Positions 40,540 through 47,303 of a stretch of DNA of 64,000 nucleotides are shown piece after piece. Every line of letters begins with the position of its first letter. The stretch's first letter is position 1. This stretch comes from Thermobifida cellulosilytica TB100 (GTDB taxonomy: Bacteria; Actinomycetota; Actinomycetes; Streptosporangiales; Streptosporangiaceae), in the NCBI RefSeq assembly GCF_001517975.1, contig NZ_KQ950182.1, forward strand, positions 344,169 through 408,168, read 5' to 3'. The notes beneath the pieces were generated by a model, which did not search any database, was not told the origin of the DNA, and saw only the letters and a program-made list of their open reading frames with translations. A program made the position numbers and the translations under genes.

Positions 40540-41202
40540 ATGGTCGGTGTGTTGGGTGGCAGGCGCCGGCGCCGTCGGCAGAAACCGGCCGCCACGGTGG
40601 ACGCCGCGCTGGAGTACGCGGCGCTGGGATGGCCGGTGTGCAGGGGAGCGCATCCCGACCGCGAGGGGCCGCGCTCCTGTACCTGCGACCGGTTGGGATG
40701 TCCGGCCCCGGGGGTGCACCCGGTCAGCGCGGCGTGGGCGGTGGAGGCCAGCACCGACCCCGACACCATCAGACGCTGGTGGTCGGCCGCGCCGGAGGCG
40801 AACATCATCCTGCCCACCGGGCGTGTGTTCGACGTCTTCGACGTGCCCGCGGAGGCCGGGGTGATGGCCATGGCCCAGGTGGACCGGGCGGGCCTGCGCC
40901 TGGGGCCGGTCGCGGCCCTGGACGCCCAGCGCTACCTGTTCTTCGTGGCCACCCGTTCCCCCATCGACGAGGACGAGTGGTGGTCCTGCCGCCTCGACTG
41001 CTTCCCCGAGACGGTCGAGGACACCCCGGGCCTGCGCTGGCACTGCCGCGACAGCTACGTGCCCGCCCCGCCGTCGCTGCTCCCCTCGGGACGCACCGTC
41101 GAGTGGATCCGCTCCCCCTTCAGCACGGAGGGCCCCGTCCACCTGCCCGACCCGATCGCGATGCTGAGCATCCTGGTCGACGTGTGCGGGACCCCCTCCT
41201 GA
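40540..41202 (+). CDS. Prim-pol N-terminal-like protein
   Basis: 220 residues with the fold signature of the bifunctional DNA primase/polymerase N-terminal domain: AALEYAALGWPVCRGAHPDREG, CPAPGVHPVSAAWAVEASTDPDTIRRWWSAAPEANIILPTG. The catalytic carboxylates of true prim-pols (DxD after the glycine loop) are altered: the site reads VFDVFDVPAEAG, which keeps an Asp pair but the rest is divergent. It has a basic head (RRRRRRQ). A similar small protein follows hemB in streptomycetes, so this is probably a conserved chromosomal gene, not phage-derived. Function unknown. Convergent with pglX, ten bases between stops. Confidence 0.7.
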   Translation: MVGVLGGRRRRRRQKPAATVDAALEYAALGWPVCRGAHPDREGPRSCTCDRLGCPAPGVHPVSAAWAVEASTDPDTIRRWWSAAPEANIILPTGRVFDVFDVPAEAGVMAMAQVDRAGLRLGPVAALDAQRYLFFVATRSPIDEDEWWSCRLDCFPETVEDTPGLRWHCRDSYVPAPPSLLPSGRTVEWIRSPFSTEGPVHLPDPIAMLSILVDVCGTPS

Positions 41203-41212
41203 GCGGACCGGA

Positions 41213-44200
41213 TCAGGCGGGCCGCCAGGTGCTGAGGTGGTCGTCGGTGAGGTCGTGGCGCTCCTGCTGCGCGGCGAGCCAGTCGGCGATCCGCGCCGCG
41301 TCGGCCCCGTCGTACCACTGGCGCAGCCACGGCAGGAGCTCGCGCACCCCGGCGAGCAAGGGGGCGACCTCCTCCCGGCTCCACGCCTCGGCGGGACGGG
41401 CCTCGACGAGCCCCACGAGGGCCTCGGCCCGCTGCAGGTGGTCCCACCCGGCCCAGCCCAGCACGACCGCGCCGTCGTGCGGCGGCTCCGTCCGCGGATA
41501 GGACACGAACCGCTCGCCCGGCAGGTCGAGCCGACCGCGGTTGGCCCAGTACGAAGGCCTGCGGAAGTCCGCGGAGGCGTAGCGGGGCGGCACGGGGACG
41601 TCCAGGACGCGCCCGGTGCGGTCCTCCTCCCGCTGCAACTGCCACACCTCCTCCCAGCGCGCGTACTTGCGCAGCCCCGACGGCCGGTACCGGTAGGCGG
41701 CCAGGAAGGGGACGTGCTGGTCGGCGACGACCTGTTCGAGCACCTCGACCAGACCGGCGCCGGGACGCCCCAGGTGCTCGGCGGCGTACCACCCGGCCAC
41801 CGCGACCACGTCCTCCCCGTCCGGCGCGCGGGTCAGGGCGTCGGCCAGTTCGGCGAGGGTCAGCGTGCGGGGCACGGCCGTGCCGTCGCGGTCCGCGAAC
41901 CACAGGTCGCGCCGTTCGCACCGGTCCAGCAGCCAGGACCGCAGCGCGGCGGCCTGGCGCTCCTCCCACGGCTCGCACCACCAGCGCCGCTTGCACTCGG
42001 GGCGCTCCACCAGGGCCAGGTCGCTGCGCTTCTCCAGCAGGTCGATCCGGGCCTGCACGACCCTGCGGTACTCCTCGGGCCAGTGCCGGGGCAGCTCGGT
42101 GACGGGGGTCGTGCCGTGCCGGGCGAACCAGGCGGTCATGGAGTCGCCGACCGCGATCTGACGGGCCAGGACGATCTCGAAGGCGCGCTCGCCCGGGGCG
42201 ATCCCGGGCACCTCGACGGGGTCGGGGGAGAGCACCGCGGCGGCCTCGGAGTCGGAGAGCAGCCCGTAGAGGCCGTACACCTGCCAGTCCAGCTCTTCCT
42301 GGAGCGCGACCATCCGGCGGCGCAGCGCCTCGGCGGCCTCCCGCGCCTCGGCCAGGCGCTGCCGGGAGGGCACGCCCCGGGCCACGACGGCGGCGGGTTC
42401 GTGGTCGGCGACCTGCCGGGCCAGGGAGTCCAGGGTGCGGGCGGGTTCGAGCGGCAGCCGGGCGGGCAGCGGCAGGCCGGACAGCCGCGCCGGCGCGAAC
42501 TGGTGGCGCTCCTGCCACGCCTCCTCCCCGCTGCGGCCCGGTCTTCCGGCCCTGGACGGGTTGACCTGCTTGAGCCAGAAGCACGCCGCGGCGGAGTTCA
42601 GCACCCCCAGCAGCCGCAGGTGGTCCTCCTCGGTGGCCCCCTCGGGGAGGCGCAGCGCCGGGGAGCCCTGCCCGAACACCGTCCCGTCCCGGTCCAGCGC
42701 GAAGTGGGTGTGCGTGGCCGTCTCCGCGTAGGCGATGGCGAGCGGGCCGCGGCGCCGGTCGGCCTGGAACGCCGGGTAGCCGTACCAGGGCTGGCCGGGG
42801 GCGGCCCGACCGCGCAGGAGGGTCCGGTAGGCCCACAGGAGGCGCTCCGCCTCCGGCGGGAGGTCCGGGGCGGGCGGCTCACCGGAGTACGGCCACAGCG
42901 AGACGACCGGAGCGGCGACCCGGAAGTCCCGGACGGCGCCGCCCGCGGCCACCGGCCGCCGGTGCGGCGCGCCGACCCGGGCGCGCACCAGGACGCCCTC
43001 GCCCACCGCGTGGACGCCGTCCTCGCGCAGCAGCGTGTCGCAGCCGACCTCGGCGACGCGGTCGCCGAGGCGCTGCGGGGCGCCCTCCAGGTGCCGCCGC
43101 AGCTCCTCCCCGCCGCCCCCGCTGAGCGACCAGGGATGGCAGGCGCGCAGGTCGCGGTCGCCGTTGCGGACGCTCACCCAGGCGGTCTCGATGCCGGGGC
43201 GGCCGACGTTCTCCACGATGGAGCGCCACACCGCGCCCCGGGCCGGGTCCGCGGGCGGGGCGGGCTCGGCGCGCGTGCCGAGGACCTCGCGGATCGGGTC
43301 GGCCCAGCCCTGGACGGTGTTGCGGCCGACGAGGACGACGGTCGGGGCGCTGCGCCCGGGCAGGAACGCGCCGGAGGTGTCGACGATGTGGGTGAGCTTC
43401 ACCTTCCGGCCCAGGAAGTCCTCGACGAGCTTGCGGCCGAACTCGCGCTTCAGGAACGCGTTGGCGGTGATCTGCCCGGCGAAGCCCGCGTGCTCGCGGG
43501 TGGCCAGCCGGAAGAGCCGCTGGGTGAACGGCACGGACAGCGGGTAGGCGCCCGAGCAGACGTCGTAGACGGAGCGGTAGTTGGCGTTCTCCTGGCGGTC
43601 CCGCACCACCGCGTGGGGCGGCTCGGTCACCACCGCGTGGTAGCTCTCGCGGCCCAGCAGGTCCACCCGCCGGACGTGGTCCGCCACGTCCTCGGTGGCG
43701 TAGGTGAACACCTGCCGGTCGGCGGTGGGCGGGCCGTCGGCGGAGCTCCACGCGTCCCGGCCGTGCAGCAGTGCGTCCCCCACCGCGATGTGGAGGGGGA
43801 AGTCCGGCGCCTGGTCCAGGCGGCGCGCGCCGGTCTCGCGCAGCACGCAGACGAGCAGGCGGAACCGGGCGATGCTCACCGCGAGCGGGTCCCGGTCGCA
43901 GCCGTGGACCGAGTTCAGGGCCTTGCGGACCAGTTCCCAGAGGTCGGCCTGCGCCCCCGCCGCCGCGCGGTGCCGGGCGAGGAGGCGGGTGAACATCCCG
44001 AGCAGGAACTCGCCGCTGCCGCAGGCGGGGTCGATGGCCCGCAGTCCCCTGTGCTGCCAGACGGCGCCGCCCGAGCCGCTGCGCACCTCCAGTTCGGGCT
44101 CCAGCCCGAACTCCTCGATCGCCGGCTCCAGGGTGAGGTCGAGCAGGAAGTCCACGACGAAGGCGGGCGTGTGCAGCGGGGCGTGGGCCGTGCGCGCGGA

Positions 44201-44785
44201 CTCGTGCAGCCCCTGGTACAGGTCGGCGAGGAAGCCGGTGTCCAGGTCGGGGTCGGTGAAGTCGTGCACCGGGGCGCCGTCGGGGCCGCGGCGGCGCCAG
44301 AATTCCAGCAGCGCGCCGGCGGCCTCGGCGCTGGGGGTGAGCTGCCACAGCGGGTTGTAGGAGCGGTTGAACAGCCCCTCGGTGGTGCGGTGGCACTTGG
44401 CGAGGTGGACGAAGGCGGAGACCAGCCAGTCGCGGTCGTTCAGGTTGGGGGTGGTGGCGAAGAACGCCTGCTGACGCGCCTCGGCGGCCTCCGCCCGGTC
44501 GCCGGGACCGGTGATCCAGGGCTGCTCGACCAGTCCGTTGTCCTCGCAGAACCGGACGAACAGCGTGCCCAGCACCCAGGCGGCGGCCGCCTGGGCGACC
44601 CGCTCGTCCCGCCAGGCCGGGTAGGAGGCGCCGGTGCGCCGCGCCTCGCGAGCCGCGCGGTACTCCGCCTCCAGGACGGCGGCGAACTCCTCCTCCGCAC
44701 TGCGGGCGCGGAGGTCCTCCTCCAGCAGCACGGCCTGTCGGCCCAGCTCCGCCAGCAGGTCACCTCGGTCCTTGCAACCGGCCAC
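41213..44785 (-). CDS. pglX: BREX-2 type PglX adenine methyltransferase (orphan, altered catalytic motif)
   Basis: 1190-residue protein that matches PglX of type 2 BREX (Pgl phage-growth-limitation) in length and order: N-terminal LLAELGRQAVLLEEDLRAR and LGTLFVRFCEDNGLVE; SAM motif I DPACGSGEFLLG (residues 252-258); target-recognition blocks GQITANAFLKREFGRK and VDTSGAFLPGRSAPTVVL; C-terminal RPSYWANRGRLDLPGERF and WAGWDHLQRAEALVGL. The catalytic tetrad NPPY is replaced by EPPH (43613-43624), which argues against normal N6-adenine methylation. No pglW, pglY, pglZ or helicase gene lies in the window; neighbours are housekeeping. GTG 44785 is used, after GGGAGG; an upstream GTG at 44821 is possible. 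Confidence 0.8.
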   Translation of the reverse strand: MAGCKDRGDLLAELGRQAVLLEEDLRARSAEEEFAAVLEAEYRAAREARRTGASYPAWRDERVAQAAAAWVLGTLFVRFCEDNGLVEQPWITGPGDRAEAAEARQQAFFATTPNLNDRDWLVSAFVHLAKCHRTTEGLFNRSYNPLWQLTPSAEAAGALLEFWRRRGPDGAPVHDFTDPDLDTGFLADLYQGLHESARTAHAPLHTPAFVVDFLLDLTLEPAIEEFGLEPELEVRSGSGGAVWQHRGLRAIDPACGSGEFLLGMFTRLLARHRAAAGAQADLWELVRKALNSVHGCDRDPLAVSIARFRLLVCVLRETGARRLDQAPDFPLHIAVGDALLHGRDAWSSADGPPTADRQVFTYATEDVADHVRRVDLLGRESYHAVVTEPPHAVVRDRQENANYRSVYDVCSGAYPLSVPFTQRLFRLATREHAGFAGQITANAFLKREFGRKLVEDFLGRKVKLTHIVDTSGAFLPGRSAPTVVLVGRNTVQGWADPIREVLGTRAEPAPPADPARGAVWRSIVENVGRPGIETAWVSVRNGDRDLRACHPWSLSGGGGEELRRHLEGAPQRLGDRVAEVGCDTLLREDGVHAVGEGVLVRARVGAPHRRPVAAGGAVRDFRVAAPVVSLWPYSGEPPAPDLPPEAERLLWAYRTLLRGRAAPGQPWYGYPAFQADRRRGPLAIAYAETATHTHFALDRDGTVFGQGSPALRLPEGATEEDHLRLLGVLNSAAACFWLKQVNPSRAGRPGRSGEEAWQERHQFAPARLSGLPLPARLPLEPARTLDSLARQVADHEPAAVVARGVPSRQRLAEAREAAEALRRRMVALQEELDWQVYGLYGLLSDSEAAAVLSPDPVEVPGIAPGERAFEIVLARQIAVGDSMTAWFARHGTTPVTELPRHWPEEYRRVVQARIDLLEKRSDLALVERPECKRRWWCEPWEERQAAALRSWLLDRCERRDLWFADRDGTAVPRTLTLAELADALTRAPDGEDVVAVAGWYAAEHLGRPGAGLVEVLEQVVADQHVPFLAAYRYRPSGLRKYARWEEVWQLQREEDRTGRVLDVPVPPRYASADFRRPSYWANRGRLDLPGERFVSYPRTEPPHDGAVVLGWAGWDHLQRAEALVGLVEARPAEAWSREEVAPLLAGVRELLPWLRQWYDGADAARIADWLAAQQERHDLTDDHLSTWRPA

Positions 44786-45353
44786 CGCGCCTCCCTCATC
44801 CGATCCGGCTCTCCGGGGCACACGCGCCTCTCATCCTGCCAGGCGGCATCCCGCAGACAGGGCCGGAACGGGAGATCCGTCCAGGTGGTACCGGAGTCGG
44901 TCGAGACGGGCGGGCCGGGAGGCCGGAAGACGCGCGACCGCGGGGAGCGCGGCCGGAGGCAGCCGGAACGGGGAAAATCGCGAATCGACCCACGCTTCTG
45001 CGTCAGGGGGGTAACATTCTGAAGCAGAGCACTCACCGAGCGTTGACTGTGGTGTTTGCGGGCCTCGCGGTACCGCAGGACGTTCGGGCGGTGACGCGGC
45101 CGTCCCCTGCGGCTGCGGCGGCCGTAGGAGTGCGTCCGGACTCGGGTGGGCGGGCATCCCGACATGTCCGCCCACCCGTTGCAGACGGGCCGCGTTCCGG
45201 CGTACCAGGGGGAGATGGAAAAAGGGGGGCACGTCGGGACGCGGCCTCCACCGGTACCGTCGGCGCCCGCCGACGGGGTCGAGGCTCCTGCCTGCGGAGC
45301 GGTGGACGCCGCTCCGCAGGCAGCGGGGCCCGGCCGCGCCCCGGTGGCGGCGC
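44786..45353. other. Non-coding region between pglX and rraA
   Basis: 568 bases. The left part is the pglX promoter/leader on the minus strand, the right part is the rraA 3' region with a strong terminator (45288-45323). Near 45000 there is a short A/T-richer stretch. Reading frames here run antisense to rraA or are Arg/Pro-rich noise; I see no gene. Confidence 0.5.
45288..45323 (-). terminator. Terminator downstream of rraA
   Basis: Perfect 15-bp stem with a six-base loop beginning 30 bases after the rraA stop codon. No U-tract. Confidence 0.65.
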
Positions 45354-45845
45354 TCAGCCCAGCGCCAGTTCCCGGTCGCTCACCACGATCCCGTCCTCGT
45401 CGCTGTACAGCCACGCCCCCGGCGTGAACACCACCTGGCCGAAGGCGACCGGGCCGTCGACCACGCCCGCGCCCGCCTTGGCGGACTTGCGGGGGTTAGA
45501 CCCCAGCGCCTTGATCCCCAGCGACAGCGTGGCCAGCTCGGCGACGTCGCGCACCGCGCCGTTGATCACCACGCCCGCCCAGCCGTTGCGCTCGGCGGCC
45601 CTGGCGATCATGTCGCCCATCAGCGCCGACCGCAGCGAGCCGCCGCCGTCCACCACCAGGACCCGGCCCTCGCCGGGCTGGTTGAGGACCTCCTTGACCA
45701 GGGCGTTGTCCTCGTGGCACTTGACGGTCCGGATCGGGCCGAAGAACGCCCGGACGCCGCCGAACTGGCGGAACTGGGTCTCACAACTGGCGAGTTCGTC
45801 ACCGTGGGCGTCGATCAGGTCGGCGGTGGTGAAGTCCGTGGGCAT
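45354..45845 (-). CDS. rraA: RraA family protein
   Basis: 163-residue trimeric-type protein of the RraA/HMG aldolase family: [29 protein letters not shown], the [22 protein letters not shown] loop, and [15 protein letters not shown] with the Asp-Arg pair. In E. coli RraA inhibits RNase E; many homologs are instead class II 4-hydroxy-4-methyl-2-oxoglutarate aldolases, and both carry these residues. Which applies is not decidable from sequence. Divergent from hemL. Confidence 0.88.
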
Positions 45846-46010
45846 CGGTCGCTCCGTGGGTGTCGGTGGCGGGAACCGGGGCCCGTGCGGGGGCGCCCCG
45901 GGAGCGCGGACGCGCCCCAAGTTACCGACCGGTCCGCCACGGTCCGCGACCAGGGGGCGCGAACCGCGTCCCGGAACCGGGGCGGTGCCGACGGCTGACA
46001 GACTGGGCGT

Positions 46011-47303
46011 GTGGCTACTCAACAGACATCACGTGAGCTGTTCGAACGCGCCCGGGCCGTGATCCCCGGCGGGGTGAACTCCCCGGTCCGGGCCTTCAAG
46101 GCGGTCGGGGGCACGCCCCCGTTCATGGCGTCGGGCAGGGGCGCCTACCTCACCGACGTCGACGGGAACACCTATGTCGACCTCATCTGCTCGTGGGGGC
46201 CGCTGATCCTGGGCCACGCCCACCCGGCCGTCGTGGAGGCGCTGGCCCAGGCGGCGTCCCGGGGCACCTCCTACGGCGCGCCCACCGCCGCCGAGGTGGA
46301 GCTGGCGGAGGAGATCGCGGCGCGCACCCCGGTGGAGAAGGTGCGGCTGGTCAACTCCGGCACCGAGGCCACCATGTCCGCGATCCGGCTGGCCCGCGGC
46401 GCCACCGGCCGCAGCAAGGTGGTCAAGTTCGCCGGGAACTACCACGGCCACGTGGACGCGCTGCTGGCCGCCGCCGGGTCGGGGGTGGCCACCTTCGCCC
46501 TGCCCGACTCGCCCGGGGTCACCGGGGCCAGCGCGGCCGACACCATCGTGCTGCCCTACAACGACGTGGCCGCCGTCGAGGCGGCCTTCGCCGAGTCCGG
46601 GGACGACATCGCCTGCGTCATCGCCGAGGCGTGCCCCGCCAACATGGGCGTGGTGCCCCCGCGCGACGGCTTCAACGCCAAGCTGCGGGAGATCACCGCC
46701 CGGCACGGCGCGCTGCTCATCCTGGACGAGGTCCTCACCGGCTTCCGGGTGAGCCCGTCGGGCTGGTTCGGGCTGGAGGGCGTCACCCCCGACCTGATGA
46801 CCTTCGGCAAGGTCATGGGCGGCGGGCTGCCCGCGGCCGCGTTCGGCGGCCGGGCCGACCTCATGGACCAGCTCAGCCCGAGCGGCCCCGTCTACCAGGC
46901 GGGCACGCTGTCGGGCAACCCGCTGGCCACCGCCGCCGGACTGGCCACGCTGCGCAACGCCACGCCCGAGGTCTACGCGCACATCGACGCCGCCGCCGCG
47001 CGGGTCTCCGCGGCCGTGGGCGAGGCGCTGTCCGCCGAGGGCGTGCCGCACCGCATCCAGCACGGCGGCAACCTGTTCACGGTGTTCTTCACCGACGAGG
47101 AGGTCGTCGACTTCGACGGCGCCCGCGCCCAGAACACCGCCCGGTACGCGGCGTTCTTCACCGCGATGCTGGAGCAGGGCGTCTACCTGCCGCCCGCGGC
47201 GTTCGAGGCGTGGTTCTTCTCGGCCGCGCACGACGACGCCGCCCTGGACCGGATCGTCTCCGCCCTGCCCGCCGCGGCCAAGGCCGCGGCCCAGGCGGCC
47301 TAG
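46011..47303 (+). CDS. hemL: Glutamate-1-semialdehyde 2,1-aminomutase
   Basis: PLP enzyme converting glutamate-1-semialdehyde to 5-aminolevulinate, following HemA. 430 residues. PLP Lys in [19 protein letters not shown]; also [40 protein letters not shown] and [22 protein letters not shown] start at 46011 fixed by the family N-terminus ([19 protein letters not shown]); no Shine-Dalgarno sequence is evident. Physically separate from the rex-hemACDB cluster by about 6 kb. Confidence 0.96.

What the first reader, a model, noticed from the sequence alone, without database searches (positions are those of the whole stretch)
41213..44785. Orphan BREX-2 PglX methylase with a broken catalytic tetrad
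The protein matches type 2 BREX PglX over its full length, including an intact SAM motif (DPACGSG), but NPPY, where the target adenine is handled, reads EPPH. None of pglW, pglY, pglZ or the helicase gene is nearby; the neighbours are prim-pol-like, hemB, rraA and hemL, a stable core locus. It may be a decayed remnant or a repurposed SAM- and DNA-binding protein without methylation. A whole intact 3.5-kb frame argues for selection.
Basis: partly seen in the sequence, partly recalled or inferred. Interest (0 to 1): 0.85.

Follow-up and report, generated by a model that had tools for sequence, protein, structure and literature searches.

The report
Likely inactive second BREX-2 methylase paralog
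All four Thermobifida genomes examined carry, at the same spot among their heme-synthesis genes, a second copy of a phage-defence DNA methylase whose active site has eroded while the rest of the protein is still kept by selection, which suggests it survives for something other than marking DNA.

Summary
It is not the genome's only BREX component: PglW, PglX (NPPY), PglY, PglZ and BrxD lie on another contig. All four Thermobifida genomes held have the gene at one hem site and BREX-2 elsewhere; six outgroup hem loci lack it. The motif reads EPPH, SPPH, DPPY and SPPA, against NPPY in 94 of 102 PglX surveyed; DPPY may be active. Breaks concentrate in the methylase core (24 of 70 near-invariant columns, versus 9 of 70 C-terminally). 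The frame is under purifying, somewhat relaxed selection. I read it as a retained pseudo-methyltransferase, probably a BREX-2 modulator or scaffold; that role is inferred. In tested PglX proteins, replacing the motif tyrosine abolishes, or nearly abolishes, methylation and abolishes defence. An independent Streptomyces clade (EPPF/EPPS/EPPY) stands beside HEC-01 ATPase/DUF4276 genes; most of its members keep an aromatic residue.

The parts
41213..44785 (-). degenerate second BREX-2 PglX (pseudo-methyltransferase candidate), GTG start, 1190 aa
   Evidence: NF033451 1537 bits; start and ribosome site; orthologues in 3 of 3 other Thermobifida genomes at the same site
43613..43624 (-). motif IV reads EPPH (residues 388-391) instead of NPPY
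   Evidence: orthologues SPPH, DPPY, SPPA
44012..44032 (-). motif I DPACGSG (residues 252-258), intact; the next residue is E where 92 of 92 canonical PglX kept for that count have H
43376..43915 (-). Eco57I-type methylase domain (residues 291-470)
   Evidence: PF07669 34.5 bits
42716..43075 (-). target recognition domain, approx. residues 571-690; one TRD family in all four orthologues
   Evidence: TRD comparison; boundaries approximate, from the alignment
41219..42313 (-). C-terminal DUF7008 (residues 825-1189), intact
   Evidence: PF22654 464.5 bits; 61 of 70 near-invariant C-part columns unbroken in all four orthologues
44790..44797 (-). ribosome-binding site GAGGGAGG before GTG
45143..45252 (-). 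conserved structured element upstream of the gene (two hairpins, C-rich loop); relation to the gene unknown
40540..41202 (+). flanking Prim-Pol domain gene (context, not part of the feature)
   Evidence: PF09250, syntenic
45354..46022 (-). flanking rraA frame (context)
   Evidence: syntenic in 4 of 4 Thermobifida; name by reading of the sequence

Best explanation
A lineage-specific paralog of BREX-2 PglX entered the hemB/prim-pol - rraA/hemL interval, most likely in the ancestor of Thermobifida, and was kept there while its methylation site eroded (shown by comparison of four genomes). In the window's species (EPPH), and in those with SPPH and SPPA, it most likely cannot methylate adenine (inferred from motif chemistry and from the tested Y-to-A mutants of two PglX proteins). 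Most likely role (inferred): a non-catalytic partner of the genome's own BREX-2 system. It would keep the fold, the SAM motif, a recognition domain and the conserved N- and C-terminal parts, and so bind PglZ/PglY or the active PglX and tune or scaffold the complex, much as METTL14 serves METTL3. Confidence: about 0.75 that it is a retained non-methylating paralog in at least three species; about 0.3 for the specific BREX-partner role.
For: 4 of 4 Thermobifida genomes carry it at one site; the orphan protein finds no match (E 1e-8) in 6 of 6 outgroup hem loci read (6 of the 8 located). Among 250 family genomes only these four score 2476-2532 bits against the orphan profile; the next is 1742. 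Motif IV is broken in 4 of 4 orthologues against 94 NPPY of 102 PglX surveyed. Breaks concentrate in the methylase core (24 of 70 columns) versus the C-terminal part (9 of 70) (Fisher p 0.005). Purifying selection: omega 0.17-0.40 (1x4) or 0.09-0.17 (3x4) over six pairs, against neutral simulations of 0.65-0.87 and 0.35-0.48 made for two of the pairs; 6.5-15 stops expected on average in the pairwise nulls, none seen. TRD 57-68% identical in the four orphan pairs compared, versus 30-41% between orthologous active PglX whose other parts are 78-87% identical. AlphaFold model mean pLDDT 86, pTM 0.67, with the CamA/BseCI/BrxX fold. All four genomes have BREX-2 for it to partner. Y381A in S. coelicolor PglX leaves methylation almost undetectable and does not restore phage resistance; Y511A in E. 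coli BrxX abolishes methylation, defence and DNA binding. METTL14 has EPPL and is inactive but needed.
Against: One orthologue (G001) has DPPY and keeps most methylase-core residues (5 of 70 broken), so it may be active; the clade is not uniformly dead. Its TRD also scores higher against some active PglX (60-63% to L041, L106, L072) than against the other orphans. Omega is 1.2-3.5 times that of hemB and 1.6-4.3 times that of the prim-pol gene, pair for pair, so constraint is relaxed and slow decay is not excluded; against the active BREX-A PglX (G000-G001) it is similar (0.29 to 0.21 under 1x4, 0.12 to 0.14 under 3x4). In one pair (G001-G002) the shuffled null also reached zero stops. In E. 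coli the motif-IV tyrosine is needed even for DNA binding, which argues against a plain DNA-binding role. No physical, expression or methylation evidence links the protein to BREX.
Confidence: 0.5

Rival explanations
1. Slow decay: a redundant PglX copy losing function from its catalytic site outward, intact in frame only because stops are rare in G+C-rich DNA and too little time has passed.
For: Omega is raised 1.2-3.5 times over hemB, most in the G000-G002 pair (0.40 under 1x4). The replacements of N and Y differ between species. In one of six pairs the shuffled null also reached zero stops. In the T. fusca pglY locus a 72-residue PglX fragment shows that PglX copies do decay in this genus.
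Against: All four frames are intact, omega is well below the neutral simulations made for two pairs, 6.5-15 stops are expected on average and none seen, C-terminal invariants are mostly kept, and ribosome site and upstream blocks are conserved.
Confidence: 0.2
2. Still a working methyltransferase with altered motif IV or altered target base.
For: SAM motif intact in 4 of 4; one orthologue is DPPY, a form known from other N6-adenine methylases such as Dam (recalled).
Against: EPPH, SPPH and SPPA lack tyrosine, and SPPA any ring. SPPA contains the same Y-to-A change that inactivates S. coelicolor PglX. Residues Q205 and H259, invariant in 92 canonical PglX, are changed in 4 of 4, N442 and K446 in 2 of 4 but not in the window's copy.
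Confidence: 0.12
3. A chromosomal DNA-binding protein with a role unrelated to BREX, for example at host promoters.
For: Fixed site in a core locus in 4 of 4 species; TRD not swapped; conserved upstream elements suggest regulated expression.
Against: No partner or target is known; the C-terminal DUF7008 is kept; loss of the motif-IV tyrosine abolished DNA binding in E. coli BrxX.
Confidence: 0.15
4. A store of recognition-domain sequence for recombination with active PglX genes.
For: Active PglX orthologues in the genus have swapped TRDs, and the orphan TRD family is shared with active PglX such as G002's (G001 orphan to G002 BREX 56%).
Against: The orphan TRDs of G000, G002 and G003 each have an orphan as nearest match and no near-identical TRD was seen in a resident active PglX; a silent store would not need an intact frame.
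Confidence: 0.03

Closest known systems
BREX-2 (Pgl) PglX, NF033451 / S. coelicolor SCO6627
   Same: Full-length architecture, motif I, Eco57I domain, TRD, DUF7008; 56% identical to the genome's own BREX-2 PglX
   Different: Motif IV EPPH instead of NPPY, further core losses, not next to pglW/Y/Z/brxD, fixed core-genome site, TRD not swapped
METTL14 (pseudo-methyltransferase partner of METTL3)
   Same: Motif IV EPPL in place of DPPW, intact methylase fold without activity, kept for complex integrity and substrate binding (PMC5023411, passages seen); an analogy only
   Different: RNA m6A enzyme of eukaryotes; METTL14 lacks bound SAM, whereas the SAM motif here is intact; no heterodimer has been shown here
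Streptomyces EPPF/EPPS/EPPY PglX beside HEC-01A/HEC-01B
   Same: PglX with N of NPPY replaced and some of the same core residues changed (Q205, H259, N388 in all four compared, Y391)
   Different: Separate clade, next to AAA_21 ATPase and DUF4276 genes, found in one genome without BREX-2 PglZ (S. durocortorensis); most members keep F or Y in motif IV, so they may not be inactive
Catalytic mutants PglX Y381A and BrxX Y511A
   Same: Loss of the motif-IV tyrosine
   Different: Laboratory mutants of active proteins; they do not support defence, so the natural variants cannot simply replace PglX

Membership tests
BREX-2 PglX protein family | full-length match above the NCBIfam cut-off | tested here: met
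   1536.9 bits, cut-off 400, profile 2-1181 of 1185
BREX-2 PglX protein family | SAM-binding motif I DP[AT]CGSG | tested here: met
   DPACGSG; in all 102 PglX surveyed
BREX-2 PglX protein family | catalytic motif IV NPPY | tested here: not met
   EPPH; NPPY in 0 of 4 orthologues, 94 of 102 overall
BREX-2 PglX protein family | encoded with pglW/pglY/pglZ | tested here: not met
   those genes lie on another contig with their own PglX; active PglX of G001 system B and G002 is also far from pglWYZ, that of G003 on another contig
BREX-2 PglX protein family | N6-adenine methyltransferase activity | not testable with these tools
   needs assay or long-read modification data
BREX-2 system (whole genome) | PglW, PglX, PglY, PglZ, BrxD present | tested here: met
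   PglW 1560, PglX 1775, BrxD 680 bits, PglZ 800 bits; PglY full length but 1015 bits, under its 1700 cut-off
BREX-2 system (whole genome) | BrxH helicase | not tested
   no family search was run for it
pseudo-methyltransferase paralog | catalytic residues lost, gene retained under selection in several species | tested here: met
   3 of 4 orthologues lack N and Y, one (DPPY) lacks N only; omega below neutral simulation
pseudo-methyltransferase paralog | shown lack of activity and shown non-catalytic role | not testable with these tools
   needs biochemistry

The most novel reading that the evidence does not exclude
Pseudo-PglX is a recurrent invention: at least twice, in Thermobifida and in Streptomyces, a BREX-2 PglX copy lost its catalytic motif (in the Streptomyces clade and in the window's species through the METTL14-like change to E-PP) and was kept as a non-methylating subunit, in one lineage as a trans-acting partner of BREX-2 and in the other as the DNA-sensing arm of a HEC-01 ATPase/DUF4276 defence module that can exist without BREX.
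Probability: 0.3. Interest if true: 0.75.

Novelty: new variant of a known kind. Interest (0 to 1): 0.6.

Why it matters
How PglX couples recognition, methylation and restriction in BREX is unsettled, and the two tested motif-IV tyrosine mutants lose methylation and defence together. Natural PglX proteins that lost motif IV yet are kept offer a way to separate these functions: they show which surfaces selection keeps when methylation is gone. Thermobifida gives a series within one genus (DPPY, SPPH, SPPA, EPPH beside a working copy), and the Streptomyces clade suggests that PglX recognition can be coupled to a different effector.

Tried and rejected
Considered and rejected: a sequencing error (four species differ from NPPY at this motif in four ways); the + strand frame 41237-45022 as the gene (the homology, codon-position GC and conservation sit on the minus frame); a genome without BREX (refuted); the orphan clade elsewhere in the family (only Thermobifida among 250 family genomes drawn). 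HEC-01A relatives in Thermobifida: no close copy, best 34 bits in G002 and none in G000. Rfam on the region and on nine related loci: nothing at gathering score; one sub-threshold plant miRNA match, rejected as chance. Sigma-70-type promoter and terminator scan: none. phmmer against the PDB gave only weak BrxX/PglX matches (E 0.03-0.05), a weak type I M-protein match and PPR proteins, the latter taken as chance. Papers: 'pseudo-methyltransferase' does not occur in the 8 of 29 papers listed; 'inactive MTase' and 'orphan' do not occur in the main text of PMC12839542; the one paper is unrelated; of 3 papers with Thermobifida and BREX the 2 listed have unrelated titles; none has Thermobifida and PglX; none of the 10 of 1,093 listed for names T. 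fusca. Subscription papers are not held, so this is weak evidence that the thing is not in print. Codon fits for two BREX-B pairs gave omega near 0, a failed fit from saturation, not used. NG86 estimates for the orphan were higher (0.34-0.64; hemB 0.13-0.24); the codon models were preferred because of the G+C bias. For one search two canonical rows (L115, L111) with 40 and 26 odd columns were dropped; one search gives the count with them (120 columns; orphans break 17, 5, 16, 21; leave-one-out canonical median 0, next largest 5). In the tree (quick method, TRD columns included) three orphan rows, G011 and L084 were flagged for odd letter make-up; no AU test was run.
Full report
What is there. 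Window 41213-44785, minus strand, encodes 1190 residues from a GTG at 44783-44785 preceded by GAGGGAGG. It matches NCBIfam BREX-2 PglX with 1537 bits against a cut-off of 400 and has the Eco57I methylase domain and DUF7008. Motif I is DPACGSG; motif IV is EPPH at 43613-43624. An AlphaFold model from 43 aligned PglX (mean pLDDT 86.3, pTM 0.67) has the fold of the adenine methylase CamA (Z 28 over 534 residues), M.BseCI and BrxX/PglX. The catalytic motif is degenerate; the predicted fold is not.

The genome. PglZ was found on another contig. That locus encodes PglW (1560 bits), a PglX with NPPY (1775 bits; motif), PglY, PglZ and BrxD; PglY is full length but under its cut-off in this and most genomes (4 of 20 over). 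The finding is therefore a second PglX, 56% identical to the first. The other three genus members also have W, Y and Z and one or two NPPY PglX. The genus is read from T. fusca: G003 contig 37 and the named record of L102 have the same length. In G001 (second system) and G002 the active PglX lies hundreds of kilobases or more from pglWYZ; in the draft of G003 it is on another contig, at least about 25 kb away, and G003 keeps a 72-residue PglX fragment, 87.5% identical to that copy, upstream of pglY. Lack of linkage is thus not special to the finding.

Conservation. All four genomes carry the gene between the prim-pol gene and rraA in the order rex-hemA-hemC-hemD-hemB-primpol-PglX-rraA-hemL. 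In six other genera of the family the orphan protein has no match in the hem locus (6 loci read of 8 located). Of 250 family genomes only these four score in the orphan range (2476-2532 bits; next 1742). In a quick tree of 102 PglX the four form one clade (support 100), sister to the BREX PglX of G000 and G001 (support 97).

The motif. NPPY is found in 94 of 102 PglX surveyed. The exceptions are the four Thermobifida copies (EPPH, SPPH, DPPY, SPPA) and four Streptomyces copies (EPPF three times, EPPS once). In further loci L135-L207, some of them repeats, 53 of 59 frames with motif I have NPPY; the other six are again these two clades, four of them the Thermobifida copies again. Among 173 columns near-invariant in 92 canonical PglX, breaks in at least one Thermobifida copy hit 24 of 70 columns in the methylase core, 9 of 70 in the C-terminal part, 3 of 23 in the N-terminal part, 0 of 6 in the TRD and 0 of 4 in the linker (core against all the rest p 0.0005). 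Per copy the core has 14, 5, 14 and 18 breaks for G000, G001, G002 and G003. G001, with DPPY and few breaks, may still be active.

Selection. Pairwise codon models over six pairs give omega 0.17-0.40 or 0.09-0.17 by frequency model; neutral simulations with the same changes, made for two pairs, give 0.65-0.87 and 0.35-0.48; hemB gives 0.10-0.17 and 0.05-0.08, the prim-pol gene 0.07-0.11 and 0.03-0.06, the active BREX-A PglX (one pair) 0.21 and 0.14. Random placement of the observed changes makes 6.5-15 stops per pair on average, though in one pair the null also reached zero; there are none in the genes. So the gene is kept, under constraint weaker than its neighbours' and not clearly weaker than that of an active PglX. 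Active PglX orthologues in the genus differ by swapped recognition domains (TRD 30-41% identical, the rest 78-87%); the four orphan pairs compared share one TRD family (57-68%, the rest 64-80%). The G001 orphan TRD scores higher against some active PglX of other genera than against its orthologues, so the TRD family itself is an ordinary one. My inference is that the orphan has left the specificity race.

What a broken motif IV does. In S. coelicolor PglX, Y381A leaves methylation almost undetectable in vitro and fails to restore phage resistance (PMC4365076, section 6 read). In E. coli BrxX, Y511A abolishes DNA binding, methylation and defence without harming stability (PMC11842806, passages). 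T. fusca's SPPA contains the same Y-to-A change. METTL14, with EPPL, is an inactive but needed partner of METTL3 (PMC5023411, passages). PglX is toxic without PglZ in S. coelicolor (PMC4365076, passages), so a non-methylating PglX that binds PglZ or PglX could tune the system. That step is inference.

A second clade. In Streptomyces the EPPF/EPPS/EPPY PglX is transcribed away from an AAA_21 ATPase (HEC-01A by PADLOC, 312-344 bits in six of six loci) and a DUF4276-type gene (HEC-01B: PADLOC for L088 and L089; by similarity in the other four, cut by the locus end in L176). The loci are L084, L088, L089, L117, L175 and L176; L084 and L175 are near-identical by score and frame length. In L089 and L117 the unit lies about 1.2 kb beyond pglW (1666 and 1661 bits) of a BREX-2 locus with its own NPPY PglX; in L176 too it lies near pglW (1684 bits) and an NPPY PglX. 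S. durocortorensis, a draft genome, has the unit without a PglZ or other PglX match. By score 4 of 295 Streptomyces genomes have it. The two clades are separate in the tree, so change of NPPY with retention happened at least twice. Against reading this clade as inactive: most members keep F or Y at the last position (EPPF in L088, L089, L117; EPPY in L176; EPPS in L084 and L175), and no activity is known. On rechecking I lowered the novel case from 0.35 to 0.3 for this reason.

Judgement. A retained, probably non-methylating PglX paralog is well supported for three of four species; its job is not. Decay is the main rival.

Noticed in passing
window 45143-45252 (-); L038:6267-6379, L039:5769-5881, L040:6748-6860: A 110-113-nt element between rraA and the PglX copy, 96% mean column identity in four Thermobifida, folds into two hairpins with a nearly invariant C-rich loop and 3 of 38 pairs with changes on both sides. 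No Rfam family at gathering score; a covariance model finds it in 4 of 80 genomes, only Thermobifida, once each (four near-identical sequences and strict filters, so low sensitivity). Possible unannotated RNA or terminator.
   Followed up: partly
L084, L088, L089, L117, L175, L176: PglX with altered motif IV (EPPF/EPPS/EPPY) divergent from HEC-01A/HEC-01B genes in Streptomyces, a candidate hybrid defence module, in one draft genome without BREX-2 PglZ.
   Followed up: partly
L208:12881-13096 (-): T. fusca BREX-2 locus keeps a 72-residue C-terminal PglX fragment upstream of pglY, 87.5% identical to its intact PglX on another contig.
   Followed up: no
L034:163-465: A short frame by the BREX-2 locus of G001 reads like Cas2 by eye, suggesting a CRISPR array nearby; not searched.
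   Followed up: no
L171 between 5879 and 10114; L174 between 5861 and 8486: In two other family genomes the same hem/rraA interval is wider and holds other DNA (between rraA and hemL, and between prim-pol and rraA), so it may be a mild insertion spot.
   Followed up: no
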